Source: Bacteriovoracaceae bacterium (GTDB lineage: Bacteria > Bdellovibrionota > Bacteriovoracia > Bacteriovoracales > Bacteriovoracaceae). Taken from it: a DNA stretch of 64,000 nt. A program made the position numbers and the translations under genes. Below are positions 16,194 to 51,909 of the stretch, piece after piece (position 1 is the stretch's first letter; each line of letters opens with the position of its first letter). The DNA lies in assembly GCA_013141065.1 (NCBI GenBank), contig JABFRR010000003.1, forward strand, positions 1-64,000. The letters are read 5' to 3'. A model generated the notes under the pieces. The model worked only from the letters and a program-made list of their open reading frames with translations, searched no databases and had not been told where the DNA came from.

Positions 16194-16221
16194 TAAAGCT
16201 TCCAAAAATATAATCCGAAAT
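16194..16221 (+). promoter_or_regulatory. Sigma-28 (FliA)-type promoter of flagellin
   Basis: TAAAGCTT (16194-16201), 12 bases, then TCCGAAAT (16214-16221) is close to TAAAGTTT-N11-GCCGATAA, one base longer than the optimum. It gives a leader of about 125 bases before the flagellin ATG. The intergenic region 16070-16354 holds no other supported gene; the promoter of the divergent operon was not resolved. Confidence 0.5.
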
Positions 16222-16354: not shown

Positions 16355-17188
16355 ATGGGTTTACGTATCAACACGAACGTTACATCTCTTGCTGCTCAAC
16401 GCACACTTGGTGTTAACAACGCAGAACAAGCTTCGACACTAGGGAAGCTATCATCAGGGACTAGAATCGTAAAAGCTGCAGACGATGCTGCAGGACTAGC
16501 GATCTCTGAAAAATTAAGAGCACAAATTAGAGGTGTCAATCAAGCGGAACGAAACGCTAATGATGGTATCTCAATGATTCAAACTGCAGAAGGTGGTTTG
16601 AATGAAGGCTCAAACATTCTTATTCGATTAAGAGAACTTGCAGTTCAATCAGCATCAGACACAGTAGGTGAAGCTGAAAGAAAATTTACAGATCTTGAAT
16701 ATCAAAACTTAAAACAAGAATTAGAAAGAATTTCTCAAGTTACAGAGTTTAACGGAAAGAAGCTTCTTAATGGTGAAGGTGATAAGTACGATTTTCAAGT
16801 TGGTATCAACAATGATGATTTTCAAGATAGAATTAAGTACGATGCTGCTAAATCGAATTCTTCACTCGCAGGATTGGGAATTGGTGAACTTTCTGTCGGA
16901 ACAAAAGATGAGTCACAAGCTTCTTTAAACAAGATTGACATGGCCATTCAAACTGTTTCAGGACAAAGAGCAGAATTAGGTGCGGTTCAAAACCGTCTAA
17001 CTTCTACAATTAATAATTTACAAACAAGTTCAGAAAACTTATCTGCTGCTAACTCTCGTATTAGAGATACAGATTTCGCTGCAGAATCAGCAAGAAATAC
17101 AAAGATGTCTATCTTAACTTCTGCTGGTACATCAGTGTTGTCTCAAGCTAATGCTCAAGGACAAGCTGCACTTAAGCTTTTAGGTTGA
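16355..17188 (+). CDS. fliC: Flagellin
   Basis: The 277-aa protein is a minimal flagellin with only the D0/D1 domains. The N-terminus MGLRINTNVTSLAAQRTL and KLSSGTRIVKAADDAAGLAI, and the C-terminus RIRDTDFAAESAR then LSQANAQGQAALKLLG, are the conserved coiled segments that form the filament core. There is little variable D2/D3 region (residues about 150-200), typical of short flagellins in Bdellovibrio-like bacteria, which often carry several copies. GGGAGGA lies seven bases before the ATG. A strong terminator follows. Confidence 0.97.
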   Translation: MGLRINTNVTSLAAQRTLGVNNAEQASTLGKLSSGTRIVKAADDAAGLAISEKLRAQIRGVNQAERNANDGISMIQTAEGGLNEGSNILIRLRELAVQSASDTVGEAERKFTDLEYQNLKQELERISQVTEFNGKKLLNGEGDKYDFQVGINNDDFQDRIKYDAAKSNSSLAGLGIGELSVGTKDESQASLNKIDMAIQTVSGQRAELGAVQNRLTSTINNLQTSSENLSAANSRIRDTDFAAESARNTKMSILTSAGTSVLSQANAQGQAALKLLG

Positions 17189-33785: not shown

Positions 33786-33833
33786 CCTAAAAAGATTGTT
33801 TTATTATTTTTGGTGACGTTAAGGAGATTTAGT

Positions 33834-36800
33834 ATGCATTTTTTCACACACTTTTTTCTTATGTTACTCGTCTTGGTTAGTGCAGTTTCAGCGAATGATA
33901 TTCCTGGCTACATAGGTAAGCAATCTTTTAGATTGCAAGATGATCAGGAACTTGAAAACGTTAATCGACGTGCTGAAGATGCAAAAATTAATGTCGCCAG
34001 GGCAGAACAAGCTCAAGAGCAAATAGGCAATCAACTTCGAATTCTAGAAAATCAACAGACTTCTATAAAAGATAAAATGGAGCTTTTGGCAAAAGAAGTT
34101 AGTGATATGAAAAATGCTAAGACTTCTTTAGTGACTAAATTAGATGAACTTAAAAAAACGCCAGAAGTAAATGCAGAGGCAATTACCAATGTCACAAAAG
34201 AAATTGCTGATCTCGATGCAAAAATCTTAGAAAGAAATAAAATTGCAGGGGCGCTTAAACTTGAAAGTGCGCCATTAAATGTTCGTATCGATCAAGTAAG
34301 AAGTGATTTTAATATTGCTGCAAGAAAAACAGAAGATGCTCGTCAAAGAATGCAAGTTATTGCCAGAGAAAGAGAAGAATACCGCTTAGAATTAATTGCA
34401 GCAATTAAAAAAATAAATTATGAAGGTTCTCGTGTTGGTCAATCGGATGGTTCTAGTGATGGTGCTGATCTTGCTTGGAGAATGGCAAATGATCGTGGAG
34501 CTATCGACGGAAGTAACGATGGTGGAAGTTCTGGAACTAGAGACGGACAAGATCGTTTTTACCGAAGAGGATCAGAGCAAGGGGAACGTGATGGTTCTGC
34601 ACGTGCTCGCCTGGATGGAGTGAGAGACGGTTCAAGAGAAGGAACACTAAGTGGTAACAGTACTGCTGGATCTCGCGAAGGAAGAATCGTTGGATTAAAA
34701 AGAGGTGATGCTTCTGATGCCGCAAGCGTTGGGACAATTCAAGGAAAAAAAGCTGGATTTGATCGTGCCGTTGTGACTGGTGCAGCTAACGGAAGAAATA
34801 TTGGTGAGAGTGAAACGACAAAAAAACTTGAGACAGAACAACTTAAAGATGTAGGGCTTGATGGATCATTTGCAGGAAGTTTTGCAAGAAGATCACCTGA
34901 TTATCCGGGAGATTTTAATGGGTCAAATTTCAGACCAACAATTAATCACAGCAAAGAAATTTTAAGAAAAGCTTATGCGGATGGATATCTTTTTAATTAT
35001 CGTCAGTTCACGAGATATGAATTCGAAAGACGAATTGATAATGATTATAATCTTCGTTATGACGCTAGTTTTAAAACAGCTTATGACCAGGCCGTTAATA
35101 GAGATTACCCAGCTTATTACGATCAAGGTCGTAGAGAGGCAGACGCTCGAGCTTATGGACGTGATTATCCAGTCATTAAGGGTGATGCTTTTAAAGCGGC
35201 ATTTGACCAATTTAATGAAAATCCTAATCGTGGCAGTGGAGAATTTAAAGCTGCTTATGCTCAATCAGAGCTTTCAGCTTATAACGAAAGATATGAGGCG
35301 ATCAGAGTTTCAAATTTTGACCGTGTAGAGCAAGAAGTTTTTAATGCGAATATCACAGCTCAGACAGAAATTTATCGTCAAAAAAGAACGGCTGAGGTTA
35401 CGGCCATTTATAATAACCATGCTATCTTAGATTTTGTTTCAAGTGAAATGTTTGATGGTGGAATTAAGGGCGTCGCTAAATTAGATGGAGTTTTCCAACC
35501 AAGTGAGACAACAATCCATAATGTTGTTATTCGCAATTTTGGATTTAAAAATGCTACGAATGTAAGTGTAGTATTAAACGATGGCCAGTCATTTCAAATT
35601 CCAAGTATCCCGGCCAGAAGTCTAGTTTCGATAAAAGGTGCAGGTCAATCTTTTGTGACTTCAGGATTAAATACGACTTATAAGTCTAGTTTAAAAGTTA
35701 TCTCGCCACTTACTTCACAAGATGCAGTTGAAGCGCGACACTTTGATAGATTTAATGGTGGTGTATTAAAAGAAGCTGATATTAAAAATGTGCGAGTTGT
35801 ATACCCATTAGCGCTTTCAGGTCTTTCTCTTGAGTCTCAATTACTTAAAGGAACAAAGAATAAATTAAAGATCACTCTTACGAATAATTCAAAACGTGAG
35901 TATAAGGGTGAATTAAAAATTAAATTGTTAGTTAATTCTCAAAATCCAATTATTACAAAAGAATTTAGTACAGTTGGAACTCTTGCGTCTTCTTTAAGTT
36001 TATCTGATGCTGAAATTTTAGTTGATTCTGAAGCAGATGCTTACAGAGATTTATCTTTATCTGCTTCTATTGAACAAAATGGCGTTTTAATCGGAATTTT
36101 ACCGGCCGATTTTGTGACGATGGCAAAAGCACAATTTGCCGATAAAGGTAACGTGCCAGTCCTTGTTGCTAATTCAGATACTCACCTTGATAGATTCTTA
36201 GATGCACTAAACACATTAGGTGGATCTGATAAAGTTTCAATTCTCGATTTAAGTTTAGCTTCTTTAAATGCTGGAACGATTAATAATGGTTTATCTGAAA
36301 AAGTTCTATTGATCGTTGATGATGCTAATGGCTCAAGTATTAAATCGCTAAACACTTTTGTGTCTAAGTCAAAGACATCGGCTTATTTATTTATAGATGA
36401 TGCAATATCTGGATTAAAAAATGTTCAATCACTTCCTGCACTCAAAGATGCAGTTAAGCTTTCATATGGTAAACGTCCAGTCGTTTTTTCTAATCCTCAC
36501 CGGGCCACTGGTGTGTTAAAGGCATCCTCTTTTATGCAGTCTAGCCTTGCTAATATGAAAGCTGATTTAAGACTTTCATCTTTACTGGCGTTAAGTGCAC
36601 CAAAGCACCTTGCTGTGTTGAATGCAGAAGTCACTGCCGATGGATTTTCCACTCCAAATGATGCGATTAAAACTTTCTCTCTTAAGGCCTTATCAGAAGT
36701 ATTAGCAATCAATATTGCTTATGATGAATCAGGTGGTATTTTTAGTCGTGATAAAAAATGGGCAAAAATGATCGCAGAAGACGGTTCATTATTTCACAAT

Positions 36801-37091
36801 CAGTTAAAATCGGCTTCTTCAGGTGACGTTGTTGTTTCTAAATTGCCAATGATTTTGTCGGCCATCGCCATGAGAGAAACAATATCAAGTGCTATGAATA
36901 GAGGAGAAGGGATTTATCGTGAGATGAAACTCAAAATCACGAATGCAACAAACAATGTCTTAGATGATATGAATAAATCTTTTGAGAAAAATTTGAAAAA
37001 GAATTTTAAAGAGTTGTATAATAGAGCCTATGCAAATAAGGCAACCCACAACCCATTTTTTATTCCTGAGCCAACGAATCCAAACAATTAA
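33834..37091 (+). CDS. Large exported coiled-coil protein with a GX3 repeat array
   Basis: 1085 aa from ATG 33834, chosen for AAGGAG and because a signal peptide (MHFFTHFFLMLLVLVSAVSA) follows at once; a GTG at 33810 would add eight residues. Residues about 35-190 are a coiled coil rich in Glu/Lys/Ala. Residues 198-324 are glycine every fourth residue with Asp/Ser/Arg between (GQSD, GSSD, GAID, GSND). Residues 360-530 are Tyr/Arg/Asp/Ala-rich (AYADGYLFNYRQFTRYEFER). The last 500 residues look like beta-sandwich and mixed domains. Exported to the periplasm or surface. Function unknown; it overlaps the following subtilase-like gene. Confidence 0.8.
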   Translation: MHFFTHFFLMLLVLVSAVSANDIPGYIGKQSFRLQDDQELENVNRRAEDAKINVARAEQAQEQIGNQLRILENQQTSIKDKMELLAKEVSDMKNAKTSLVTKLDELKKTPEVNAEAITNVTKEIADLDAKILERNKIAGALKLESAPLNVRIDQVRSDFNIAARKTEDARQRMQVIAREREEYRLELIAAIKKINYEGSRVGQSDGSSDGADLAWRMANDRGAIDGSNDGGSSGTRDGQDRFYRRGSEQGERDGSARARLDGVRDGSREGTLSGNSTAGSREGRIVGLKRGDASDAASVGTIQGKKAGFDRAVVTGAANGRNIGESETTKKLETEQLKDVGLDGSFAGSFARRSPDYPGDFNGSNFRPTINHSKEILRKAYADGYLFNYRQFTRYEFERRIDNDYNLRYDASFKTAYDQAVNRDYPAYYDQGRREADARAYGRDYPVIKGDAFKAAFDQFNENPNRGSGEFKAAYAQSELSAYNERYEAIRVSNFDRVEQEVFNANITAQTEIYRQKRTAEVTAIYNNHAILDFVSSEMFDGGIKGVAKLDGVFQPSETTIHNVVIRNFGFKNATNVSVVLNDGQSFQIPSIPARSLVSIKGAGQSFVTSGLNTTYKSSLKVISPLTSQDAVEARHFDRFNGGVLKEADIKNVRVVYPLALSGLSLESQLLKGTKNKLKITLTNNSKREYKGELKIKLLVNSQNPIITKEFSTVGTLASSLSLSDAEILVDSEADAYRDLSLSASIEQNGVLIGILPADFVTMAKAQFADKGNVPVLVANSDTHLDRFLDALNTLGGSDKVSILDLSLASLNAGTINNGLSEKVLLIVDDANGSSIKSLNTFVSKSKTSAYLFIDDAISGLKNVQSLPALKDAVKLSYGKRPVVFSNPHRATGVLKASSFMQSSLANMKADLRLSSLLALSAPKHLAVLNAEVTADGFSTPNDAIKTFSLKALSEVLAINIAYDESGGIFSRDKKWAKMIAEDGSLFHNQLKSASSGDVVVSKLPMILSAIAMRETISSAMNRGEGIYREMKLKITNATNNVLDDMNKSFEKNLKKNFKELYNRAYANKATHNPFFIPEPTNPNN
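34425..34805 (+). repeat. Protein-coding GX3 (12-nt period) repeat array
   Basis: Within the 1085-aa gene, residues 198-324 show glycine at four-residue spacing over roughly two dozen units, with a few longer gaps (RFYRR, ARARLD, ASDAASV, FDRAVVT). Units such as GSSD, GSND, GTRD, GERD, GVRD, GSRE recur. A deca-GX3 array is known from the Yae1 N-terminal family, but here it is longer and in an exported protein. The DNA units are diverged, so this is an old protein repeat, not a recent tandem duplication. Confidence 0.7.
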
Positions 37092-37911
37092 TATCTTGAT
37101 AAAATTGCTTAGATTGCCGTTCCTTTTGGGGGCGGCTTTTTTATTTATAGCTGCTGTTTCACCCACTGACGCCTATTCAGAGATTAAAGTTGCCATTATT
37201 GATACCGGTTTTTGCCCAGAAAAACTTGTTAAAATTAAAAAAAATATCACAATCCAATCGCAAATCGATTTTACCAGACATAAGAAGTGGGATTGTAGCA
37301 AGATTTCAAAAAAAGTCTTAAATTCTTCACCTCGGTTTCATGGCCATAAAGTCTTGTTAGAGTTTTTAAAATTTGCACCCAAAGGAGAAAAAATTACTGT
37401 TAAGCCAATGGTGGTTTTTGACTTAAAAGGCGAGCAATCTAAAGAGGCATGGATTAAGGCCATAAAGTATGTTGAAAAGGGAAATTTTGATTTCGTTTTA
37501 TCTGCAAGTGGTTTTGTCACAAAAGAAAAATTTATTGATGAGCTCCCTGGCATTTGGTTTGTTCCTTCAGGTCGAATAGAGCGTTCTATCAAAAAAAACA
37601 CAGTGCTTTTTCCTCAATCCTTGGCCCCGCAAGTAAATCTTTATCTCATTGGTGATTATCATGATGGTCGCGAAACATTTTACGACCAGTCTCTACTTTT
37701 CCAAAATGTCATTGACTATTATTTTCCTGTTGGTAAGGGATTATTTAAGGGGACATCTAGAGCAGTAGCAGAGGCTTTTGGTATTGCTTTAAGGTCTTGT
37801 TATAAAGCAAAAGAGCTTAGTCCTCCTCATGCAATGCGCTTATGTCTTTTGAAGAAATCTAAAAATCTCCGTGATCCCGTGTTAAAAATAGATTTCAAAA
37901 CCTATCAATGA
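37030..37911 (+). CDS. Divergent subtilase-like (S8) exported protein
   Basis: The 293-aa frame holds the three S8 blocks in order: VAIIDTGFCP (Asp58), RFHGHKVLLEF (His104) and GTSRAVAEAFG (Ser243), plus a possible oxyanion region. The core is smaller than in usual subtilisins and the flanks are unlike them, so activity is uncertain. A hydrophobic segment LPFLLGAAFLFIAAVSP (about 29-45) would be the signal peptide; from ATG 37030 it has a long basic lead and overlaps the previous gene by 62 bases, so a TTG at 37096 or 37105 may be the real start. Co-transcription with the GX3 protein is likely. Confidence 0.7.
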   Translation: MQIRQPTTHFLFLSQRIQTINILIKLLRLPFLLGAAFLFIAAVSPTDAYSEIKVAIIDTGFCPEKLVKIKKNITIQSQIDFTRHKKWDCSKISKKVLNSSPRFHGHKVLLEFLKFAPKGEKITVKPMVVFDLKGEQSKEAWIKAIKYVEKGNFDFVLSASGFVTKEKFIDELPGIWFVPSGRIERSIKKNTVLFPQSLAPQVNLYLIGDYHDGRETFYDQSLLFQNVIDYYFPVGKGLFKGTSRAVAEAFGIALRSCYKAKELSPPHAMRLCLLKKSKNLRDPVLKIDFKTYQ

Positions 37912-41936: not shown

Positions 41937-43277
41937 TTAAAATTGATATTTTTCTTTGAGGTATCTGAACATTTCTACTTTTGCTTCAAGCTTTATTAAT
42001 CCTCGCCAAATACTAACCGTCCCGGGCTCTCCGTCGCTTTTACGGCCATTAAAGCCCCCCATCTTAGCGACAAATCGTAGGGCCTCTCTAATCGTTATTC
42101 TTTGATCATCAGATATCTTATTTTCTATTTTCAAAACGAGTGATTCTTCTTCTGAAAAAGAAAGACTTGAATCTTCATCTGGAGCTGCTTCTGCTAAATG
42201 TTTAACGTAATAAATTCTCCACGCAATAACTGAAAATAATGTGATATATTTTTCTAGTCGCTCAAATGTTCTTAATGATGCTCTCTCAACTTTGCATCCG
42301 CCATCTTTTAAAATTTTAAAATAATTTTCAATGTGCCAGCGTTTCTTATAATAATCAATGACTCTAGAAGCATCTCCAAAATTTTTCAATGGCAAACTTG
42401 TCAGCAAGATCCAGTGCAATCGATCTTTCTCTGCAACTTCCCCAGTCGTACTTATTTCTAATATATTTAACACCACTTTTCTTTTTACAGAAGTAAGTCC
42501 ATTAAGTTTGAAGCTAGGATCAAAAAATTCTATCTCACCGTACTTTACAATTGCATCCACATCTTTTTTTAACTTCGTATGAAATATTTTGAATTCATGA
42601 TCAGTTTTCTTTTTGTTCAAATGCCAGCGAAGATAATGATCTCCATTTTCGATTATTCGATCGTGCTTGGATCTAATTATAAAATCTTTATTATTTTTTA
42701 TTAAAGTAAATAGAACTTCAAACTGATCTGCCTCCCTGTCAGCGACGTGAATGAGTTTTGTGCCTTTAGGACAATGCTTTTCTGTTTCTAAAATTGCCTC
42801 TGCCCAACGATCACTTTCTTTCTCCCACATATCATCGTATGCACGACTCCATGTTGATAAGGCCATAACTCCTAGAGGTACATCATTGATATTTACAGCT
42901 AAACTATAATGTCCAATAAAACCATGAGTCTCTTGATCTCCAGCTTTTCCACCAATATTACCTAAGCCTTTTATAGATCTTTTTGAATTGAAGCTAAAAA
43001 AGCTAGAATAATGAATCATCAAAGCTACAGATTCATTTTGAAGTCTCGAAGAAGTAGACTCACGATGCTCAAATAATATTTTATCTGACGAGAAATTCTT
43101 GTGACTGAAGAGACGATAAGTTGCTTTTTTATCTGCAAAGTTAACTACCGCTTTATTAATAGTTTCGTCAGGACGTCGTGAAAAAATATTCGCCATAGAG
43201 AAAAAGCGATCGCGAAGTCTTTTATCTCCAAATTCAATATTCTTAAATTCTTTTTCTAGCCAATCGCTTTCACTCAT
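41937..43277 (-). CDS. IS4/IS50-type transposase, first catalytic Asp apparently missing
   Basis: The 446-aa frame is complete and resembles the Tn5/IS50 transposase: an N-terminal DNA-binding domain (WLEKEFKNIEFGDKRLRDRF, then KKATYRLFSHK), the second Asp in HVADREADQFEVL, the YREK signature YYKKRWHIENYFKILKDG with the catalytic Glu, and a C-terminal dimerisation region. At the first catalytic Asp, where relatives read QDTT before the beta strand, this protein reads HYSS (ALMIHYSSFFSF). Loss of that residue should abolish cleavage. I found no matching terminal inverted repeats. It may be a dead or repurposed transposase. Confidence 0.85.
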   Translation of the reverse strand: MSESDWLEKEFKNIEFGDKRLRDRFFSMANIFSRRPDETINKAVVNFADKKATYRLFSHKNFSSDKILFEHRESTSSRLQNESVALMIHYSSFFSFNSKRSIKGLGNIGGKAGDQETHGFIGHYSLAVNINDVPLGVMALSTWSRAYDDMWEKESDRWAEAILETEKHCPKGTKLIHVADREADQFEVLFTLIKNNKDFIIRSKHDRIIENGDHYLRWHLNKKKTDHEFKIFHTKLKKDVDAIVKYGEIEFFDPSFKLNGLTSVKRKVVLNILEISTTGEVAEKDRLHWILLTSLPLKNFGDASRVIDYYKKRWHIENYFKILKDGGCKVERASLRTFERLEKYITLFSVIAWRIYYVKHLAEAAPDEDSSLSFSEEESLVLKIENKISDDQRITIREALRFVAKMGGFNGRKSDGEPGTVSIWRGLIKLEAKVEMFRYLKEKYQF

Positions 43278-43536
43278 TTAATAAAAATAATTGCAACGAT
43301 GTGGATGGCCAAGCAAAAAAATCTAACAGGGCCTTACATTTGAAAATGTCAACGAGTTAAAGAAAACTTGTGGGTAATTGTTAGTTTGATTCATTAAGAA
43401 CATGTAAATTTTTCTCTCCAGGCCAAGAGGTGCACTATTGCCAATTTTTAATGGCACTCAGTGAACATTTCTTTAAGAAGCTAAATGTTTATAATCTGGA
43501 GGAATTAAACTATGGCTGCTTTTCCGATCTATTTTC
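43278..43536. other. Intergenic region without a supported gene
   Basis: Between the transposase start and the promoter of the exported-protein operon I see no gene. It contains the palindrome ACATTT-GA-AAATGT (43336-43349) directly next to a copy of the recurring 9-mer CTCGTTGAC (minus strand, 43356-43348), and a purine-rich GGAGGAATTAAACT before a 40-codon frame that I rejected. Confidence 0.4.
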
Positions 43537-43563
43537 TCAAGTTATTCGCCAGTTATCCGATAA
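43537..43563 (+). promoter_or_regulatory. Sigma-28 (FliA)-type promoter of the exported-protein operon
   Basis: TCAAGTTA (43537-43544), 11 bases, TCCGATAA (43556-43563) matches TAAAGTTT-N11-GCCGATAA at 13 of 16 positions with exact spacing. Transcription would start near 43570, leaving a leader of about 15 bases that contains the GGAG of the 882-aa gene. In Bdellovibrio a FliA-like factor is known to drive attack-phase genes, so this suggests attack-phase or motility-linked expression. Confidence 0.65.
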
Positions 43564-43584
43564 GATGGTCTATAGGAGTCTCAT

Positions 43585-46233
43585 ATGAAGATGGTCGTAG
43601 GCTTTTTAATACTCACTTTAATAGGGATTTCTGACGTTCATGCGCAGTCTTCTTCGTATGGTTTTACAAATCCGACGCTCTCTAGTAGTGGAACTGGACT
43701 TTCTGCAACCAGTAGGTTGGGAATTTCAATCGGTAGTCAATCAGAGCCTGGTATTTCTAGAATTCCGATGCAAAGTTATAGTTCTGTCTCTGGTTCGATT
43801 GATTGTCCTCAAACGACTTATTCATTGACTGAACCAATCCAAGATATGACTGAATTTGGACAAAGCTTTTCACGTTTCACAAGCTGCAAAAGGGAACCGC
43901 TTCTAATACAGAAGTTTTTGAAATCTCGCTTTAATAATACGAATTGCACTCGGGCTTTGGCCTGTAAAAGAAGTTTAACTGATCCACTTAATGCGGATAA
44001 GTTTGAGGCAGTGGATGATAAACTAAATATTCTCATTGCTAAAGATCATGCAAAAAATTTAATTGATCGAAACTTATCCCAATTAGAGCGTCTTGAAATT
44101 CTAAAAAAGTATGCGGCTAAAGAATTCAATTTAAAGGTTAATTCTAAATGCTCCGCCCCCCTATCATTAGATAAAAAATCGGATTCGTGTATGCCGGACT
44201 TAGTAGGCGAAGGTTTCCAACGTCACCAAGAGTTATGTGAAAAAGGCTCAGCGTGTTTTAAAAATCAAATGAATGGTAGTGGTACAAAATCTTACGCAGA
44301 CTTTAAAACTGAATTTATTAAAGAAAATCCAGAAGACAAGTCATCTTCATATTTGATGCTGAAATTTTTAGAATCTAAGGTCGATCAAAAAAGCCTTGTC
44401 ACTTTTGCGAAAGTTCCTCAACAAATTAACGAGGCAGCTAACTTGTTTAGTTCTGAGTCCTTTAAAAAACTCGGTGAAGAAGAGAAAATGAAAGAATTTT
44501 TTAAGCACTTCCCACCAGATGGAGCAGGGCTATTTGGAGATCCCGTTTTGGGATTTGATTTTAACAGCAATGATTTTAAAAAATTAAAAAAATCTACAGC
44601 ATTTAATGATTTGATGAAAATTTTAAATAAAAAATCACTTGATAAAACTGCATTTATTTCAGAGTTTAATAATTTTAGAAAAAAACGTGCTGAATACCAC
44701 TTAAGTAAAGGTGAAGTCTGTAATTCGGCACTTAGTTTAAATACAATTTGTAATGAAACGACAAAAATCTCTAAGGGAGAACTACTTAATTTAGATTCAG
44801 ATACAGCTAACACATTAGCCTCTGAAATGAGTGGAGATTATTCTGATTTGGCGGATTTTTCTGTAATCTTTGGAGTAGGTTTTGGTCAAAATGAACTGGA
44901 GACATTGGCCGATGCCAATCGTTGCCGCGCATTTGGACTTGCTGAATTTAGTTCGGTGTCATTAGCTGATTTGCAAAGCCCAATTGATACTAGTTTTATG
45001 GGACTCGGTAATATCTCTGGCTATGGTTCTGGTGGCAGTGTTTCAACGTATTATGGACTTGGAAATAGCTCTAGCTCAATTAGATTAGGTTCGAGTGTTG
45101 AATCAAGTGGCTTAGATAAATCTCCAGAAACTATCAATGAACCATATGGTTTAAAAGAACCTGTAGTCGGCATAGGTAATTCTGCCAATTCAAATGATCA
45201 TCTCGATGAAAGTGAAGCGGAAAGCTCTAATAATAGCATAAGTAATTTCAGCCCTCAGGCTACTGGGGCGAATCAATATTTCCCAGAGCCATTTAATTCT
45301 TCAGGCCAAAATTTTAATGCAGGAAATTTCGGATCGGGAATTGTTGATGATGAAAGTGATGATGAAAAACTTAAAAAAGCAGTTGCGGCCAATAGTCAAT
45401 TTGATGGAGTTGCAGCTAAAGCGACTACGGCAGATGATCGAGTAAGTGAATTATTAAAAAAACTCGCTGTCGCTGAAGCAGAAGTTACCAGAGTCAAAGA
45501 CGAAGCCAAAACAGCTGAAGAAGCGCGCTTACAAAAAGAAAAATTAGCAGCTGACCAAGCAGTGATTACAGATTTGAAAAAGCAAATATCAGATCTCCAA
45601 AAAAAGCCAGCTGACAAAAAAGTCATTGTGGCTGCAGCTGAACCAGCGGCGAAAGTTATTCAATCTCCAGTGACTCACCTGGGGGCTGACAGCGCAAGTT
45701 TTGCCAGAGGGGATATTGCCTTTCCAAATAAAAAAGCAGTAAGTAATTTTGATTCAGGCGAAGGAGCCATTGAAGCCAGATCTCCCATTAGTGTCGGAGC
45801 GACAAATGCAGCAAGAAATCAAGGTTCAGGGGCCATTTTAACAAGTGTGAATAATTCAGATGGATCTAAGACAACAACACTCCCATCTGGTGATGTAGTA
45901 TTGGAATTTTTTGGAGTAGCTCCTGACAAGATAGAACAACTTTTATCAGAAAGATTTAAAGACCCGGAAGTAAAATCCTTACTTATCGAAGAAGATGGTG
46001 TGATAAAAGAAGTTGTAAAAGTATTTGATGAAAACGGAAAGGATGTCTTTAAACGTATTATTCGTGGCCGCAGAGACGATTCAAAATTTGCTGGAGTAAA
46101 AAGCAATAGGGCACCGGCATCGAATGCTCTAAGCCCTGCTGATTTAAAACGTGCCCAAGACAAGTTGATGCGTGATAGGGCTGAGTATAAAAAATTAAAG
46201 GCGATTACTGACAAAGCTTTTGAAAAGAAATAA
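43585..46233 (+). CDS. Large exported protein, function unknown (first gene of four-gene cluster)
   Basis: 882 aa with signal peptide (MKMVVGFLILTLIGISDVHA). The first 100 residues are Ser/Gly-rich; residues about 100-480 are helical with paired cysteines (NNTNCTRALACKR, KGSACFKNQ, EVCNSALSLNTIC); 480-600 are Ser/Asn/Gly low complexity (SGYGSGGSVSTYYGLGNSSS); 620-690 form a short Ala/Glu/Lys coiled coil; the last 130 residues are a compact region (LEFFGVAPDKIEQLLSERF, EVVKVFDENGKDVFKRI). Overall plan resembles the 804-aa protein at the end of the cluster. Exported; role unknown. GGAG is eight bases before the ATG. Confidence 0.8.
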   Translation: MKMVVGFLILTLIGISDVHAQSSSYGFTNPTLSSSGTGLSATSRLGISIGSQSEPGISRIPMQSYSSVSGSIDCPQTTYSLTEPIQDMTEFGQSFSRFTSCKREPLLIQKFLKSRFNNTNCTRALACKRSLTDPLNADKFEAVDDKLNILIAKDHAKNLIDRNLSQLERLEILKKYAAKEFNLKVNSKCSAPLSLDKKSDSCMPDLVGEGFQRHQELCEKGSACFKNQMNGSGTKSYADFKTEFIKENPEDKSSSYLMLKFLESKVDQKSLVTFAKVPQQINEAANLFSSESFKKLGEEEKMKEFFKHFPPDGAGLFGDPVLGFDFNSNDFKKLKKSTAFNDLMKILNKKSLDKTAFISEFNNFRKKRAEYHLSKGEVCNSALSLNTICNETTKISKGELLNLDSDTANTLASEMSGDYSDLADFSVIFGVGFGQNELETLADANRCRAFGLAEFSSVSLADLQSPIDTSFMGLGNISGYGSGGSVSTYYGLGNSSSSIRLGSSVESSGLDKSPETINEPYGLKEPVVGIGNSANSNDHLDESEAESSNNSISNFSPQATGANQYFPEPFNSSGQNFNAGNFGSGIVDDESDDEKLKKAVAANSQFDGVAAKATTADDRVSELLKKLAVAEAEVTRVKDEAKTAEEARLQKEKLAADQAVITDLKKQISDLQKKPADKKVIVAAAEPAAKVIQSPVTHLGADSASFARGDIAFPNKKAVSNFDSGEGAIEARSPISVGATNAARNQGSGAILTSVNNSDGSKTTTLPSGDVVLEFFGVAPDKIEQLLSERFKDPEVKSLLIEEDGVIKEVVKVFDENGKDVFKRIIRGRRDDSKFAGVKSNRAPASNALSPADLKRAQDKLMRDRAEYKKLKAITDKAFEKK

Positions 46234-46266
46234 TTTAATATTTACATAATTGCTAAGGAAGCATGA

Positions 46267-46929
46267 ATGAAATGTCTGTCATTAGTTGTCTTAGCAATGC
46301 TTGTTTTGACTTTTAGTTATATACAAAACGCTGAAACGGCCAGCAAGATTTGTCATTCTTGTTCTTCTGATTATGTTCCCGGAGCTCAAGTGGATGGTGG
46401 TAAAACATTGGGAGACTTAGCACTTACTGCACAAGATATTTCCGATAGAGATAGTATATTCATGAGTGATTTAAGTATTTATTGCGATGACTTTTATAAT
46501 GGAAAAAACGTTAAAAAAAATATTAGAGAAGTCATTATTCCTAGTATGAAAAAATTTAGTCCTAACAAATCTATAAATGGTTTCTTTATTGAAGCAGGTT
46601 GTAATCCAAATAATTTTGTAGATGCGAAAGCTCCAATCGCTCATATTACTGCTGAAGCTCAAAATCTCAAGTCAGATTATTTGAAGATTTTAAAAGAGTA
46701 TTTTACTGAAACGAAAGAAGGACATTTTTTTAAAGAAATCTTAAATGCAAAAAACACAGAGGGCTACACAACTCTTGATTATGTTCATCATATGGTTAAA
46801 AATAAAAATTATACAAAAGTTAGTGAAAATGATTTAAACGAATATATTAAGTATTTATGTGACAACAAAGCCGAATATTCATTTTTTAAAGAAAAAAAAT
46901 GTAATGGCAAAAAAGTGATCTTAAAATAA
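46267..46929 (+). CDS. Exported ankyrin-like protein, paralogue 1
   Basis: 220 aa with signal peptide (MKCLSLVVLAMLVLTFSYIQNAETA) and a mature start KICHSCSSDYVPGAQVDGGKTLGDLAL with a CxxC pair. The remainder resembles degenerate ankyrin repeats: AKAPIAHITAEA, then NAKNTEGYTTLDYV (the ankyrin hairpin N-x-x-G-x-T-x-L-D) and YIKYLCDNKAEYS (like the repeat end V-x-x-L-L-x-x-G-A). AAGGA precedes the ATG. The next gene encodes a close homologue, about half identical, so it arose by tandem duplication. The ankyrin reading is by eye. Confidence 0.75.
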   Translation: MKCLSLVVLAMLVLTFSYIQNAETASKICHSCSSDYVPGAQVDGGKTLGDLALTAQDISDRDSIFMSDLSIYCDDFYNGKNVKKNIREVIIPSMKKFSPNKSINGFFIEAGCNPNNFVDAKAPIAHITAEAQNLKSDYLKILKEYFTETKEGHFFKEILNAKNTEGYTTLDYVHHMVKNKNYTKVSENDLNEYIKYLCDNKAEYSFFKEKKCNGKKVILK

Positions 46930-47002
46930 AATTCCAATATACGATATTTCCATCAAAAAACACCTAGTACTTGATTAGGCGGCTCCATTATTCGGCTTAA
47001 GT

Positions 47003-47029
47003 TAAAGTCTTTCTTTAAAGTATCGATAA
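47003..47029 (+). promoter_or_regulatory. Sigma-28 (FliA)-type promoter of ankyrin-like paralogue 2
   Basis: TAAAGTCT (47003-47010), 11 bases, ATCGATAA (47022-47029): 13 of 16 positions of TAAAGTTT-N11-GCCGATAA with exact spacing. It lies 45 bases before the ATG at 47074, so the second paralogue and the 804-aa gene can be expressed separately from the first two genes. Confidence 0.65.
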
Positions 47030-47073
47030 GTTATTTATAATTCAATACTCACTTAATTGAAAAGGAAGCCTGC

Positions 47074-47742
47074 ATGAAAGCTCTGTCATTGGTTATTTTT
47101 ACTATGCTGATAGTGACTTTTAGTTTTAGTCAAAATGCAAAAGCAGCTAGTAAAGTTTGTTATTCATGCGCTGCTGATTATGTTCCAGGTAATCCTGTCG
47201 ATGGGAATAAAACTCTGGGAGCGCTGGCGCTCCTTTCGGAAGATATGCTTTCAGAGAAAGATAGTGTTTTTATGAGTGATTTGAGTATTTATTGTCAAGG
47301 TTTTCATCGTGGTACAGATGCTGAAAAAACTATGAAAGAAAAAATAATTCCTGATATGAAAAAATATAGTCCTAATAAGTCGATTGATGGTTTTTTTATT
47401 GAAGCTGGATGTAATCCTTTAAATATCGCAAATGCTAAATCACCGATTGCCCATATTGCAGTAGAGTCACCGACATATCGATTGGAGCACTTAAAAATTA
47501 TTAAAAGTTATTACCAAGAATTGAAAAGACCAGAGTTTTTTGAGAAGATTATAAATGCCAAAAACACTAGAGGCTATACTACATTAGATTATGTGCAACT
47601 TATGCTTGAAAATAAAAGTTATGTAAAAGTTGTTGAAAAAGGAATGAATGAATTTATTCAGTATTTATGTGATAACGGAGCTGTTTATTCAATTTATAAA
47701 GAAAAAAGACAGTGTGACGGAAAGTATGTGGTTGTAAAATGA
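47074..47742 (+). CDS. Exported ankyrin-like protein, paralogue 2
   Basis: 222 aa, same plan as paralogue 1: signal peptide (MKALSLVIFTMLIVTFSFSQNAKA), KVCYSCAADYVPGNPVDGNKTLGALAL with CxxC, KSPIAHIAVES, NAKNTRGYTTLDYVQLML and FIQYLCDNGAVYS, the last two very like the inner and outer helices of an ankyrin repeat. Its own sigma-28-type promoter and an AAGGA site precede it. Its stop overlaps the ATG of the 804-aa gene (ATGA), so these two are translationally coupled. Confidence 0.78.
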   Translation: MKALSLVIFTMLIVTFSFSQNAKAASKVCYSCAADYVPGNPVDGNKTLGALALLSEDMLSEKDSVFMSDLSIYCQGFHRGTDAEKTMKEKIIPDMKKYSPNKSIDGFFIEAGCNPLNIANAKSPIAHIAVESPTYRLEHLKIIKSYYQELKRPEFFEKIINAKNTRGYTTLDYVQLMLENKSYVKVVEKGMNEFIQYLCDNGAVYSIYKEKRQCDGKYVVVK

Positions 47743-50153
47743 TTTTCATAAGATTGGTTTTAATTTCACTAGCAGTGTTTCATACCAGTTTGATTCTGGC
47801 TGAAACAACTCAATCACCTTGTCTGACAAAAGATGGATCTTTAGGTCTTAATACGCTAGAAAAATACGACTGCAATTTAGTTCAAGAAATTATAAAAGAT
47901 CCCAAAGTAAAAAGTGAATTCACTCAAGAAATTCAAAAGAAGCTTGCTCAGAAATTATCTAAAAAAGTCTCTGAATCGCTCGAAGAAATTGGACTCTTAG
48001 ATGCCTATTTCGATAGTTTAGGACTCGATTTGAGTCAGAATTCAAGTGATGTTCAAAAAAATTGTCAGCTCAAAGAGATGGCAAGACCCAAATGTGCTTT
48101 AGATGAAATTGCCAAGAAAAAGATAGCAGTACTCAGTTCTTTTTTTCCAACAATGAAAAAAGAAAAGATTAGAGGAAAAGTTCAATCTTCACTTTTAGGT
48201 GGCATGATCGCTAAGTCCAGTGAAGTTCGTGGGAGCGGAAATTCAAAAAATATTAATGAATGCCCAGGTGAATCTCAAGCGGGTAAATTTTTTATTGAAG
48301 CTCAATTTAGCAATGTAGATGCAAAAGAATTAATCACAGGCTTAAAAAGTGGCAAGGGACGACAAATTCGTAGAACCTATGAATTATATCCTCAACTCAA
48401 AATGATTTCAGAAATTCCACAATTATTAAGTATTTTTGAAAAGGAAATGATTGCTTTTATACCAGGAAATCTCTCCGAAAAAGAATTTGTTGATCAATTT
48501 ATTAAACGGCCTGAAACTCAAATGCAGTTAGCCAAAAAATTAGCAGATAAGTGTGAAGCAATTGCCACAAATATTGACGATTTTATTTGTAAAGAGCCAG
48601 TTCACTTGGCGACAACAGAAGCAGATCGAAAAGCTTTACTTGGCTCAAAAGAAGATTTACTTAACAAAGAGATTGCTCGTGGTTATAGTTGTGCTGTGAC
48701 CGATGAAAAAGAATTAGTAAAAGAGCAAACGATAGGTGCTTGGTTTGCAAGTTTTTCAAAAGATCTAAGAGATGAAGTAAAAAGTGACGAAGTAGCATTA
48801 TTTGCAGAGCCATTTTGTAATTTATTTTCTTGTAAAGATGAGCAAGTAAAAAAACTTCCGTCGTGTAAAACTGGTGGACCGATTAAAGGTCAAGAATTAC
48901 ATGATCTACTTTGTCTTGCTAAGTCTGATAATTGTACGTCAAAAATTCAAAAATATATTTCGTATTTAAAACTCATCGAAAAAGACGCAGCGATTTCTTT
49001 AAACCAAGGATCTCTTGCTTCAAGCACACCAGAAAATAATTCAAGTGGAGCTAAGTCAGAGAAACCTTCTGGTTACTCTTCATTTTATCAAAACTTTTTA
49101 GGTGTTGAAGGAACCTTACTGGCCGAAGGAAAAGTTCTCACTCCTTCTGCGATTGAAAATAAACGCGCTGAATTTCAAGAAAAGAAAATTGGTTCAGATG
49201 CCAATCTTAATTTAGCAGAAAAAATTGAACCAAAGGTGAGTCCTAGCGCCACACTTGCACCTGGACGAGATAATGAATCGATAAGCACACAGGCATTGGC
49301 CAGAACACCATCGGGGCAGGATAGTTTTGTGACTTCGTCAAATAATCAAATGAGAAAAATTCCCTATCAAGTAACGATACCAAGAAAAGCTGAAAGGGCA
49401 TCTGGTTTTTCACAAAGCACACCGGCGAGTAACTCACAATCTGGCAATGACATAAAAGAACTTCAAGCTGAATTGGCAAAAGTAGTAAAAGGATTAAATG
49501 GTTCAGATGAACAAAATTTAAAAACTGTTTCTCAAAACAATCAGGTTGTCGTTGGTAATGTCCCAAAGTCTAGTGGAACCTCTGACATGACGAGAGCAGA
49601 AAGAGAAAGGCTAGAGCGCTATCGACAAAGTTTAGGAGCTTGGGAAAATCGATTGCAAAATTGGTCGAGTGACTTAAGACAACGTGAAGTGCAAGGATTT
49701 AATGGATCGAAAGCAGATGAAACTCCTAAAGATGCATTGGCTATTAATAATGGAAAAGGTGTTTCGCCGGGAAATAAAGCAAGTTCGGTTTTAAGTATGA
49801 ATTCTGGAAATGCTAAAGGGGCAAAAATAACTGAAGGCGGAAATGAACAAGCAGCTGATAAATTTTTAGCAGATGATGGATCAATTATTCTTAATTCTGA
49901 AAATTTATCTTCTTTTGGACGAGAGACACTTTCAAAAATTGGAATTTTGTCTCAAGAATCTTTTATTTTAAATGTAAGGCACGAAAATCGAATATATGCC
50001 ATTCCTGTTCAATCTTTTAAGCACAAAGGGAAAAGTATTTTTGTACCACTTTTAAATGAAAAAAATCGTAATTTAGCAAAAATTGTCATTGAGAGTCCTC
50101 TTTTTAGTGACTACCGAAATTATCGTGCTGAAACGGAAGTGAGTTCTCTTTAA
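47739..50153 (+). CDS. Large exported protein, function unknown (last gene of four-gene cluster)
   Basis: 804 aa with signal peptide (MIFIRLVLISLAVFHTSLILA). Residues 20-410 are helical with regular cysteines (SPCLTK, YDCNLVQ, NCQLKEMARPKCAL, DKCEAIA, FICKEP, GYSCAV, CNLFSCK); 410-590 are Ser/Asn/Lys low complexity with a charged helix; 600-660 hold a coiled coil (TRAERERLERYRQSLGAWEN); the end is a small beta-rich unit (ESFILNVRHENRIYAIPV). Order and cysteine spacing recall the 882-aa protein without strong identity. Together with the ankyrin-like proteins it may form an exported complex; this is inference. Confidence 0.78.
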   Translation: MIFIRLVLISLAVFHTSLILAETTQSPCLTKDGSLGLNTLEKYDCNLVQEIIKDPKVKSEFTQEIQKKLAQKLSKKVSESLEEIGLLDAYFDSLGLDLSQNSSDVQKNCQLKEMARPKCALDEIAKKKIAVLSSFFPTMKKEKIRGKVQSSLLGGMIAKSSEVRGSGNSKNINECPGESQAGKFFIEAQFSNVDAKELITGLKSGKGRQIRRTYELYPQLKMISEIPQLLSIFEKEMIAFIPGNLSEKEFVDQFIKRPETQMQLAKKLADKCEAIATNIDDFICKEPVHLATTEADRKALLGSKEDLLNKEIARGYSCAVTDEKELVKEQTIGAWFASFSKDLRDEVKSDEVALFAEPFCNLFSCKDEQVKKLPSCKTGGPIKGQELHDLLCLAKSDNCTSKIQKYISYLKLIEKDAAISLNQGSLASSTPENNSSGAKSEKPSGYSSFYQNFLGVEGTLLAEGKVLTPSAIENKRAEFQEKKIGSDANLNLAEKIEPKVSPSATLAPGRDNESISTQALARTPSGQDSFVTSSNNQMRKIPYQVTIPRKAERASGFSQSTPASNSQSGNDIKELQAELAKVVKGLNGSDEQNLKTVSQNNQVVVGNVPKSSGTSDMTRAERERLERYRQSLGAWENRLQNWSSDLRQREVQGFNGSKADETPKDALAINNGKGVSPGNKASSVLSMNSGNAKGAKITEGGNEQAADKFLADDGSIILNSENLSSFGRETLSKIGILSQESFILNVRHENRIYAIPVQSFKHKGKSIFVPLLNEKNRNLAKIVIESPLFSDYRNYRAETEVSSL

Positions 50154-50283
50154 TCCAGAGCAGCAATGCAGGCTGAGATATTTACCTCAAAATCCACATT
50201 TATAACTGGGTAGACCTTTACTGAAATCATTCAATTTCCTACACTATTAGCAATATCTTAATGCAAATAGTTATGGGGACTTC

Positions 50284-51909
50284 ATGGACGTTATAGAAAC
50301 ATCAATTGATGTGAATTCTGAAATTTTTAATGAAAATAAATTCTATCATCAAGCTTTGCGAGACGAGCTTTTTTTAAAATTAAAAAAAATAAAAGATGGT
50401 GGTGGTGCCGACCAAGTGAAGCGTCATCATGAAAGGAAAAAATTTTTAGCAAGAGAACGAATTGAAAAAATTCTCGATGAAGGTTCACCTTTTATCGAAC
50501 TTTCAACTTTAGCGGCTTATAATCTTTATGAAGAAGAAGTTCCAGGCGCAGGCCTTGTAACTGGTATTGGGAGAGTTCAAGGCATCGAGTGTCTTTTTGT
50601 GGCAAACGATGCGACTGTTAAAGGTGGTACGTATTTTCCCATGACCGTAAAAAAACATTTGCGCGCTCAAGAAATCGCACTTGAAAATTTTCTCCCATGT
50701 ATTTATTTAGTTGATAGTGGAGGAGCTTTTCTTCCTAAGCAAGACGAAGTTTTTCCAGACCGTGATCATTTTGGTCGCATTTTTTATAATCAAGCCCAAA
50801 TGTCTGCCAAAGGAATTCCCCAAATCGCTGTAGTCCTTGGTTCGTGCACCGCTGGTGGAGCTTACGTTCCTGCGATGAGTGATGAAACTGTTATTGTTAA
50901 AGATAATGGAACAATCTTTTTAGGCGGGCCACCACTCGTTCAAGCAGCGACAGGAGAAATTGTTACAGCTGAAGATCTTGGTGGAGCTGACGTTCATACA
51001 AGAATAAGTGGCGTGAGCGATCACTATGCTAACGACGAAGAAGAAGCGTTTATCATAACTCGAAATATAATTGAAAATCTCAATTATAAATCTCCCGGAA
51101 ATATACAAGGATTAACAAAGAATAATAATAAAGTCAGTGAGCCTTTATACGCTGCTCATGAACTTTATGGAATTATTCCTAAAGACACTAAAAAGCCTTT
51201 TGATGTGAGAGAAATTATCGCTCGCATTGTTGACGGTAGTGAATTTCATGAATTTAAAGAACGCTACGGCAATACTCTTGTGACAGGTTTTGCTCGCATT
51301 CACGGCAATCAAGTCGGAATCGTCGCTAATAATGGAATTTTATTTTCAGAAAGTGCACAAAAAGGTGCGCATTTTATTGAGCTTTGTGGACAAAGAAAAA
51401 TCCCCTTAGTTTTTCTACAAAATATAACGGGCTTCATGGTTGGTCGTCAGTATGAAAATGAAGGTATTGCTAAGCACGGAGCAAAGATGGTCACGGCCGT
51501 TTCAACGGTGCAAGTTCCAAAATTTACAGTGATCATAGGTGGATCTTTTGGAGCAGGTAATTACGGAATGTGTGGCAGAGCTTTTTCACCGCGCTTTTTA
51601 TGGATGTGGCCGAACTCTAGAATTTCAGTCATGGGTGGTGAACAAGCAGCTAAGGTTTTATCAACTGTTAAGCAAGTCGGTTTAAAAGCCTCAAAAAAAC
51701 CTGAAATGAGTGCGACAGAAGTAGCCGCTTTTGAAAAACCAATTTTAGATAAATATGAAATTGAAGGAAGTCCTTATTATTCAAGTGCAAGACTTTGGGA
51801 TGATGGAGTCATTGATCCCATTCATACGCGAGATATTTTAGGCCTGGCCATCGCCACTTCACTTAACTCCGGAATAAGCGAAACTAAATTTGGTGTTTTT
51901 AGGATGTAA
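50284..51909 (+). CDS. liuB: Methylcrotonyl-CoA carboxylase beta (carboxyltransferase) subunit
   Basis: 541 aa. Carboxyltransferase domains: [55 protein letters not shown] (the DSGGA-x-L-P and FPD signature of MCC beta), [16 protein letters not shown] with the acyl-CoA oxyanion hole, and the second half with [16 protein letters not shown] and [15 protein letters not shown] for carboxybiotin. It carboxylates 3-methylcrotonyl-CoA in leucine degradation. It is the first gene of a six-gene operon; GGGGA precedes the ATG. Confidence 0.95.

What the first reader, a model, noticed from the sequence alone, without database searches (positions are those of the whole stretch)
43537..50153. Four exported proteins of unknown function under sigma-28-type promoters
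Two very large Cys-patterned exported proteins of similar plan flank two ankyrin-like exported paralogues, in one direction over 6.6 kb. Two near-consensus FliA promoters (43537 and 47003) serve the cluster. In Bdellovibrio a FliA-like factor controls attack-phase transcription, so these proteins may act at the prey-contact stage. None has a domain I can name.
Basis: partly seen in the sequence, partly recalled or inferred. Interest (0 to 1): 0.75.

Follow-up and report, generated by a model that had tools for sequence, protein, structure and literature searches.

The report
Sigma-28-driven, fast-changing exported protein cluster
In an uncultured relative of predatory bacteria, four exported proteins of unknown fold sit behind two promoters of the type that switches on the hunting stage in Bdellovibrio, and in related genomes a large and a small protein travel as a matched pair whose front part appears to change as a unit, as expected of something that touches prey or another changing partner.

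Summary
Four exported proteins lie at 43585-50153: BIG1 (882 aa), SMa (220), SMb (222) and BIG2 (804). The two FliA-type sites are the best two in the 64 kb, and the promoter is conserved before BIG1 and SM relatives: 12 of 13 BIG1 and 15 of 18 SM upstream regions match the published Bdellovibrio attack-phase consensus at 9/11 or more, versus 22 of 314 other genes. The genome encodes FliA and has the motif before motAB, pilB-pilT and a TadA-type ATPase. SM and BIG2 are a conserved gene pair in several Bacteriovoracaceae genera; SM was found in 22 of 368 genomes of the phylum, all in this family (one hit spurious). Cysteines are strictly conserved. In one assembly, two copies show that SM plus the BIG2 N-terminal module has a different history from the BIG2 C-terminus and flank, as if exchanged as a cassette. 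No convincing domain or structural match was found; 'ankyrin-like' is not supported by profile searches. Best explanation: attack-phase, disulfide-rich contact proteins with a fast-changing N-terminal module and a matched small partner. A role in predation is inferred, not shown.

The parts
43537..43563 (+). P1: FliA (sigma-28)-type promoter of BIG1, TCAAG-N15-CCGATAA
   Evidence: Best-scoring site in the window; site at -46 to -52 in 12 of 13 BIG1 upstream regions; in 11 of those regions, aligned on the site, boxes are 92-100% and the spacer 36% identical
43585..46233 (+). BIG1 (P0001), 882 aa exported protein
   Evidence: profile hits in 14 of 14 same-genus genomes, in G010 only over a short stretch; directly beside the acetoacetyl-CoA synthetase-like gene (label by eye) in 10 of 13 BIG1 loci read
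43804..44925 (+). BIG1 Cys-rich N-terminal region (residues 74-447)
   Evidence: 10 of 11 cysteines invariant in 10 of 10 sequences, none after residue 447
46267..46929 (+). SMa (P0002), 220 aa exported small protein, 33 nt behind BIG1, no FliA site of its own
   Evidence: upstream score only 7/11
47003..47029 (+). P2: FliA-type promoter of SMb-BIG2, TAAAG-N16-CGATAA
   Evidence: Second-best site in the window; 15 of 18 SM upstream regions score 9/11 or more; a sigma-70-like match overlaps at 47014-47041
47074..47742 (+). SMb (P0003), 222 aa exported protein with 6 invariant Cys
47739..50153 (+). BIG2 (P0004), 804 aa exported protein, start overlaps SMb stop (ATGA)
   Evidence: the pair is kept in other genera
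47802..49100 (+). BIG2 N-terminal variable, Cys-rich module (residues 22 to about 454)
   Evidence: Holds all 13 cysteines; in a relative its tree rejects the sister grouping found for the C-terminus
49461..50150 (+). BIG2 C-terminal region (residues 575-804): coiled coil, linker and short conserved domain
   Evidence: The part recognisable in most other genera (profile positions about 610-833)

Best explanation
The cluster is two FliA-controlled operons, P1-BIG1-SMa and P2-SMb-BIG2. They make exported, disulfide-rich proteins of the motile attack-type cell. SM and BIG2 work as a matched pair: SM binds the Cys-rich N-terminal part of BIG2 in or beyond the periplasm, as escort, assembly partner or guard. 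The conserved C-terminal part of BIG2 fixes or exports the protein, and its fast-changing N-terminal part meets a changing target, most likely the surface of prey. Lineages change that contact specificity by replacing SM plus the BIG2 N-module as one cassette behind the same promoter. Shown here: the genes, conserved promoter sites, FliA in the genome, gene pairing, conserved cysteines, and one case of separate histories for the SM/N-module and the C-terminus. Inferred: promoter activity, disulfides, SM-BIG2 binding, surface location, prey as the target.
For: Promoters conserved: BIG1 12/13 and SM 15/18 at 9/11 or more to TTAAG-N16-CCGATA, controls 22/314; BIG1 11/13 at 10 or more, controls 1/314; an earlier scan with mechanical start codons and E. 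coli-type weights gave BIG1 11/14, SM 11/18, controls 7/243; footprint. Consensus and FliA as attack-phase regulator: PMC3627812 (passages); FliA control of the Tad pilus in predators: PMC5430801 (passages). FliA gene at 280.8 bits. Same motif before motAB, pilB-pilT and a TadA-like ATPase in this genome. SM directly followed by BIG2 in 16 of 18 distinct same-genus SM genes and in 8 of 10 regions fetched from other genera. SM and BIG2-N distances agree (Mantel 0.863) better than SM and BIG2-C (0.662) among 12 pairs. Cassette case: G012 contigs C167/C168; trees of SM and BIG2-N (11 rows, G010 left out) reject them as sisters (p-AU 0.005 and 6e-5), BIG2-C joins them at 100/98; amino-acid identity SM 52%, BIG2-N 39%, BIG2-C 82%, flanking gene 53/66. 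Fast evolution of BIG1: dN/dS 0.29-0.46 in five genome pairs, 0.05-0.10 for a neighbouring enzyme gene in the same pairs.
Against: No expression data and no proof that this genus hunts. No structure: AlphaFold models are poor (pLDDT 51.5 and 35.8). No test of binding between SM and BIG2; Mantel values share the species history, and the C-terminal stretch is shorter and noisier. The cassette reading rests on one pair of contigs in one fragmented assembly (87% complete, 5% contamination); the placing of C168 with G013 is well supported for BIG2-N (99/99) but not for SM (82/76). Two other genes near BIG1 also change faster than the enzymes (dN/dS 0.10-0.32), so part of BIG1's speed may not be special. 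The flagellin gene in the window has only a weaker site at 16194. In other genera only 4 of 9 SM genes have a site of 9/11 or more, and BIG1b has one in 1 of 4. The genome-wide motif search gives 31 matches against 23 for the reversed control, so many single matches are chance. SMa breaks the simple pair rule (two SM, one BIG2 here).
Confidence: 0.42

Rival explanations
1. SM is a self-protection or inhibitor protein and BIG2 (perhaps BIG1) a secreted effector that acts on the prey envelope, as Bd3460 guards Bdellovibrio against its own Bd3459/Bd0816 endopeptidases; the cassette changes because effector and guard must match.
For: SM has about the size of Bd3460 (220 aa, 23 kDa, exported; PMC4686830 passages), is encoded next to its large partner, and SM and BIG2-N change together. 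Some SM have a lipobox-like start by eye, which would keep them in the envelope.
Against: No convincing enzyme or toxin domain in any member scanned. No ankyrin profile match for SM. The conserved end of BIG2 matches no enzyme profile.
Confidence: 0.2
2. The proteins are structural or accessory parts of the flagellum, sheath, pili or cell surface of the swimming cell, with no direct part in meeting prey; they change fast because phages or grazers see them.
For: FliA-type control; the same motif before motAB and pilus genes; one distant SM-BIG2 pair lies near motA/motB-like genes by eye (L154).
Against: Found in few of the genera searched (SM 8 of 48 genera of the class, BIG2 6 of 48), whereas motility and pilus genes are general in such bacteria (general knowledge, not tested here); copies per assembly vary up to about five, unlike machine parts.
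Confidence: 0.22
3. The FliA-like sites are chance or bystander sites and the genes are expressed from ordinary promoters in all phases.
For: Total motif counts are near chance in the window and genome; a sigma-70-like site overlaps P2.
Against: Conservation of both boxes over a diverged spacer and contrast with 314 control genes.
Confidence: 0.05

Closest known systems
Attack-phase FliA regulon of Bdellovibrio bacteriovorus (PMC3627812, PMC5430801; passages seen)
   Same: Same promoter type; that regulon also holds many uncharacterised proteins, cell-surface proteins and the Tad pilus operon; FliA gene present here
   Different: Promoter activity and attack-phase timing untested here; SM was not found outside this family in the phylum-wide search
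Mosaic adhesive trimer (MAT) fibres of B. bacteriovorus (PMC10769870; passages seen)
   Same: Works alike if the reading is right: exported, several copies, constant part plus exchangeable contact part
   Different: MAT have a constant N-terminal beta domain and variable C-terminal tips, 13 of 21 with an S74 domain; here the variable part is N-terminal, Cys-rich and mostly helical in a poor model, the constant part C-terminal, and a small partner gene changes with it; no S74 or fibre profile hit
Bd3460 self-protection ankyrin protein with Bd3459/Bd0816 (PMC4686830; passages seen)
   Same: Exported protein of about 220 aa encoded next to its larger partner
   Different: No ankyrin profile match in SM, six invariant cysteines, partner matches no endopeptidase profile

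Membership tests
FliA (sigma-28) regulon | Near-consensus -35/-10 boxes at fixed spacing just before the gene | tested here: met
   (BIG1 and SMb; not SMa or BIG2, which would be co-transcribed)
FliA (sigma-28) regulon | FliA encoded in the same genome | tested here: met
   TIGR02479, 280.8 bits against cut-off 189.6
FliA (sigma-28) regulon | Transcription from the site depends on FliA | not testable with these tools
   Needs start-site mapping or a reporter assay
Ankyrin-repeat proteins | Significant match to an ankyrin profile | tested here: not met
   No ankyrin family at E up to 1 in 17 or 15 SM-type proteins; PF12796 finds 3 places in G000 (2 over its cut-off), none of them SM; profile comparison with those three proteins gives nothing
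Ankyrin-repeat proteins | Stacked helix-turn-helix repeat fold | tested here: inconclusive
   Model pLDDT 51.5; many ankyrin structures among the weak hits, best E of all 0.48, none at 0.001 or less
MAT fibres | S74 or fibre domains as in part of the MAT family | tested here: not met
   None in BIG1/BIG2 by Pfam, NCBIfam or PHROGs
MAT fibres | Conserved N-terminal beta-rich domain and trimeric beta tips | not tested
   No MAT sequence was compared directly; the BIG2 model is too poor to judge
Polymorphic toxin systems | Constant N-terminal trafficking part, variable C-terminal toxin domain, small immunity gene downstream (definition recalled) | tested here: not met
   Here the C-terminus is the constant part, the small gene lies upstream of BIG2, and no toxin domain was found

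The most novel reading that the evidence does not exclude
SM plus the BIG2 N-module is an exchangeable recognition cassette of predatory Bacteriovoracaceae, made under the hunting-phase sigma factor: a second, unrelated solution to the problem that MAT fibres solve in Bdellovibrio, with each contact module carrying its own matched assembly or guard protein.
Probability: 0.27. Interest if true: 0.8.

Novelty: new variant of a known kind. Interest (0 to 1): 0.58.

Why it matters
How predatory bacteria other than Bdellovibrio recognise and enter prey is largely open. A family-restricted, FliA-type-controlled, fast-changing protein pair with an apparently exchangeable front module gives named, testable candidates. 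It also suggests that sigma-28 control of motility plus contact machinery (motAB, type IV pilus, Tad-type ATPase, these genes) reaches into uncultured Bacteriovoracaceae. If the role were different (surface change under phage pressure, effector and guard), the pair would still be a two-protein system without a known fold.

Tried and rejected
Domain searches gave nothing usable: Pfam, NCBIfam, PHROGs, PDB sequences. PADLOC was not run. The best weak hits, told for completeness: FlxA-like in 5 of 14 BIG1-type proteins (best 1.8e-4; below the curated cut-off in P0001), FemAB in 2 of 14 (4e-4), Erv1/Alr in 1 of 17 SM (0.0012), a septin chain for the BIG1 profile (0.038). I read the BIG1 ones as coiled-coil resemblance and did not follow the Erv1/Alr hit.

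BIG1 and BIG2 as homologues: rejected for lack of signal over full length and in separate N- and C-terminal comparisons.

Ankyrin reading: tested and not supported. AlphaFold models of SM (3 sequences) and BIG2 (2 sequences) are too poor to use; BIG1 was not modelled, and only the SM model was searched for folds (PDB library).

Spurious hits dropped: G016/L155 (SM profile at 1.7e-5 in a 340 aa protein that by eye is methyltransferase-like, without BIG2) and G020/L089 (BIG1 hit in an ORF that by eye is a DEAD-box helicase). Weak BIG1-profile hits in other genera (mostly in coiled-coil and linker columns) were not counted as BIG1.

The average dS of the left flank of C167/C168 (0.55) misleads: its first 50 codons are nearly identical, probably shared assembly ends, and the rest has pS 0.58-0.86. 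I therefore use amino-acid identity of the remaining 66 residues (53/66) and the trees, and make no claim about the left boundary of the exchange.

HMG-CoA reductase as a predator sign: present in 34 of the 35 own, same-genus and same-family genomes (not G010), but PMC4646340 (passages) itself calls mevalonate-pathway genes poor markers for environmental samples, and it proves nothing here.

Promoter test choices: start codons were chosen by eye for the signal peptide in some relatives (for example L063, L064, L070, L076), which affects which 150 nt were scanned; the second half of the broken BIG1 gene L081 was dropped (13 of the 14), L155 was left out of the other-genera set (9 of 10), one SM had only 92 nt upstream; the 314 control genes come from the same loci and are not independent of each other. 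The footprint uses 11 of 13 BIG1 regions (N15 sites only, aligned on the site), so box identity is favoured by the choice of rows; spacer and flank values are not.
Full report
WHERE IT IS. The window is the start of contig C9 of an unnamed 3.58 Mb genome of 21 contigs. The only named relative found is a Bacteriovoracaceae assembly (L001); that family belongs to Bacteriovoracia in Bdellovibrionota. I call the four genes BIG1 (43585-46233, 882 aa), SMa (46267-46929, 220 aa), SMb (47074-47742, 222 aa) and BIG2 (47739-50153, 804 aa). SMa starts 33 nt behind BIG1; BIG2 overlaps the SMb stop by 4 nt. With the two promoter sites this suggests two operons, P1-BIG1-SMa and P2-SMb-BIG2. No terminator-like site was found on the + strand of 43200-50400, so read-through is possible. 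A Tn5-type transposase gene (41937-43277) lies just upstream on the other strand.

THE PROMOTERS. A scan with the E. coli FliA consensus (recalled) ranks 43537 and 47003 first and second of both strands of the window, both between genes. The count at that score (3) is not far from the shuffle mean (1.7), so count alone proves nothing. The stronger test uses a consensus from outside this data: TTAAG-N16-CCGATA, present in 92 of 140 attack-phase promoters of Bdellovibrio (PMC3627812, passages). Allowing N15 or N16 within 150 nt of the start codon, 12 of 13 BIG1 and 15 of 18 SM upstream regions match at 9 of 11 positions or more, against 22 of 314 other genes of the loci and 1 of 12 BIG2 genes. 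At 10 of 11 or more it is 11 of 13 BIG1 and 2 of 18 SM against 1 of 314. In other genera 4 of 9 SM genes reach 9, two of them with 11 of 11, a score that no control reaches. In 11 BIG1 upstream regions aligned on the site the -35 box is 100% identical, the -10 box 92%, the spacer 36%, the flanks 43-44%: selection on the boxes over a diverged surrounding. The misses are SMa (7/11), L068 and L085 (8/11) and the BIG1-like copy L069 (8/11). BIG1b, a second large gene behind BIG1 in four genomes, has a site in 1 of 4.

FLIA AND ITS OTHER LIKELY TARGETS. The genome has a FliA gene (TIGR02479, 280.8 bits, cut-off 189.6); 17 of 18 genomes searched have one above cut-off. The pattern TMAAG-N14..16-CGATAA has 31 matches in the genome, 23 for the reversed control. 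Of the 30 matches held as loci, 11 lie outside ORFs of 60 aa or more and within 45 nt of a start. These are BIG1, SMb, motA (331 bits, above cut-off) with motB behind it, pilB (just below cut-off) with pilT (above cut-off) and a pilC-type gene behind it, a cupredoxin-like exported protein with a TadA-type ATPase (below that model's cut-off) behind it, a heme-synthesis-type membrane protein by eye, and five exported proteins or lipoproteins. In Bdellovibrio the Tad operon is under FliA (PMC5430801, passages). The flagellin gene at 16355 has only a weaker site at 16194.

THE FAMILIES. With single sequences BIG1, BIG2 and SM are each found in 12 of the 14 same-genus genomes (own included) and, apart from three weak hits, nowhere else among 57. 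With profiles BIG1 is found in 14 of 14 same-genus genomes, in G010 only over a short stretch. SM is found in 22 of 129 genomes of the class and 22 of 368 of the phylum, all of one family; one of these (G016) is spurious on reading. BIG2 is found in 23 of 129. Outside the phylum only the genome-contig scan with BIG2 was run, which reaches close relatives only. SM is directly followed by BIG2 on the same strand in 16 of 18 distinct same-genus SM genes; the exceptions are SMa and one at a contig end. The same holds in 8 of the 10 regions fetched from other genera, where six of the pairs stand before a long gene that by eye is PutA (two of the six read in full or nearly so). Between most genera only the last part of BIG2 is recognisable (profile positions about 610-833). 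BIG1 lies directly beside the gene that by eye is acetoacetyl-CoA synthetase in 10 of 13 BIG1 loci read; in the window a transposase and a small gene stand between. SM-BIG2 pairs sit at several places and number up to about five in one assembly.

WHAT THE PROTEINS LOOK LIKE. No library names a domain convincingly (the weak hits are told under Tried and rejected). Cysteines are the most conserved residues: 6 of 6 in SMb (17 of 17 members), 11 of 13 in BIG2 strictly (11 of 11), 10 of 11 in BIG1 (10 of 10), and in both large proteins all of them lie before residue 450. For exported proteins this points to disulfide bonds (inference). Behind the Cys-rich part come a linker with a coiled coil and a short C-terminal domain. 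BIG1 and BIG2 share the plan but no detectable homology. The ankyrin reading rests on a motif (N.KN..G.T.LDY ... GA.YS) that no profile confirms. The SM model has pLDDT 51.5; its best fold match, not an ankyrin, has E 0.48, with many ankyrin structures below it. This stays open rather than shown.

EVOLUTION. BIG1 changes fast under purifying selection: dN/dS 0.29-0.46 in five genome pairs against 0.05-0.10 for a neighbouring enzyme gene in the same pairs (the synthetase in four, the carboxylase in one), with dS near or at saturation in several. Two other genes near BIG1 (33810-37091 and 37030-37911 in the window) lie between (0.10-0.32), so part of the speed may not be special. The pair shows something more specific. 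In assembly G012 two contigs, C167 and C168, carry the same surroundings. The flanking gene is identical at 53 of the 66 residues that are not shared assembly end, the promoter region at 121 of 147 nt, BIG2-C at 82%; but SM is 52% and BIG2-N 39% identical. The change falls near BIG2 residue 460 of C167: pN drops from 0.51 to 0.13 between neighbouring 50-codon windows, inside the conserved stretch F..N.LG.EG, which in C167 starts at residue 456. Trees of 11 pairs (G010 left out) agree: BIG2-C joins C167 and C168 (100/98), while SM and BIG2-N reject that grouping (p-AU 0.005 and 6e-5); C168 goes with G013 in both, firmly for BIG2-N (99/99), weakly for SM (82/76). So SM and BIG2-N share one history while the C-terminal part and the surroundings follow another. 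Among 12 pairs, SM distances track BIG2-N (Mantel 0.863) more closely than BIG2-C (0.662). This is one case in a fragmented assembly; two strains may be mixed in it, which would make the two copies alleles rather than paralogues without changing the mosaic. A second pair of contigs of the same assembly (C64/C196) shows no such break in the part held: SM and BIG2-N are 90 and 91% identical. No claim is made about the left boundary.

HOW IT MOST LIKELY WORKS. FliA switches the operons on in the swimming cell together with the motor and pili. The proteins are exported. SM and BIG2 form a matched pair through the Cys-rich N-module; the conserved C-terminal part serves anchoring or export; the N-module faces something that changes. 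In a family known for predators, prey surface is the first candidate, phage second. The steps from pairing to binding, and from fast change to prey contact, are inference. The nearest functional parallel is the MAT fibre family of Bdellovibrio, for which the authors discuss tip swapping (PMC10769870, passages), with reversed polarity and no shared profile. The alternative parallel is Bd3460, the exported self-protection protein of about the same size (PMC4686830, passages).

IN PRINT. Literature listings for Bacteriovorax, Bacteriovoracaceae, Bdellovibrio, FliA, attack phase and prey-recognition terms and passages of a comparative-genomics paper on Bdellovibrionota (PMC11656739) showed no description of this pair. 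For most papers only titles and abstract starts were seen, and only open-licence papers are held, so this is not a proof of absence.

Noticed in passing
L063:7126-12519 and L064:1-3570: In two relatives (G003, G009) a very long protein gene lies near BIG1 and SM-BIG2 with several short genes, some of them membrane proteins by eye; the G003 protein (1797 aa) ends like a YD-repeat/RHS protein by eye, and the one in G009 was not read in full.
   Followed up: no
window 41937-43277: A Tn5-type transposase gene (446 aa, three Pfam domains) stands directly upstream of BIG1 on the other strand, between genes that are neighbours in most relatives read.
   Followed up: partly
window 33810-37911: A 1093 aa protein, exported by eye, without any Pfam match overlaps the start of a 293 aa gene; both recur near BIG1 in several relatives.
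   Followed up: partly
L220:2629-4470 (G000:C8): Another exported Cys-rich protein (613 aa, transglutaminase-like core plus TPR) has a FliA-like site TCAAG-N14-CCGATAA 30 nt before its start.
   Followed up: partly
L222 and L224 (G000:C9, C13): Two long lipoprotein-like proteins by eye (one at least 1619 aa and running off the stretch fetched, one 1463 aa) also stand right behind FliA-like sites.
   Followed up: no
L024:3009-3155 and L032:3070-3219: Around the FliA-like site of two related copies an inverted repeat (CTCGATAA ... TTATCGAG or similar) overlaps the -10 box and the leader; not seen by eye in the window copy.
   Followed up: no
L154:5753-11580 (G106): In one distant genus the SM-BIG2 pair is followed, after one gene on the other strand, by genes that by eye are motA and motB.
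   Followed up: no
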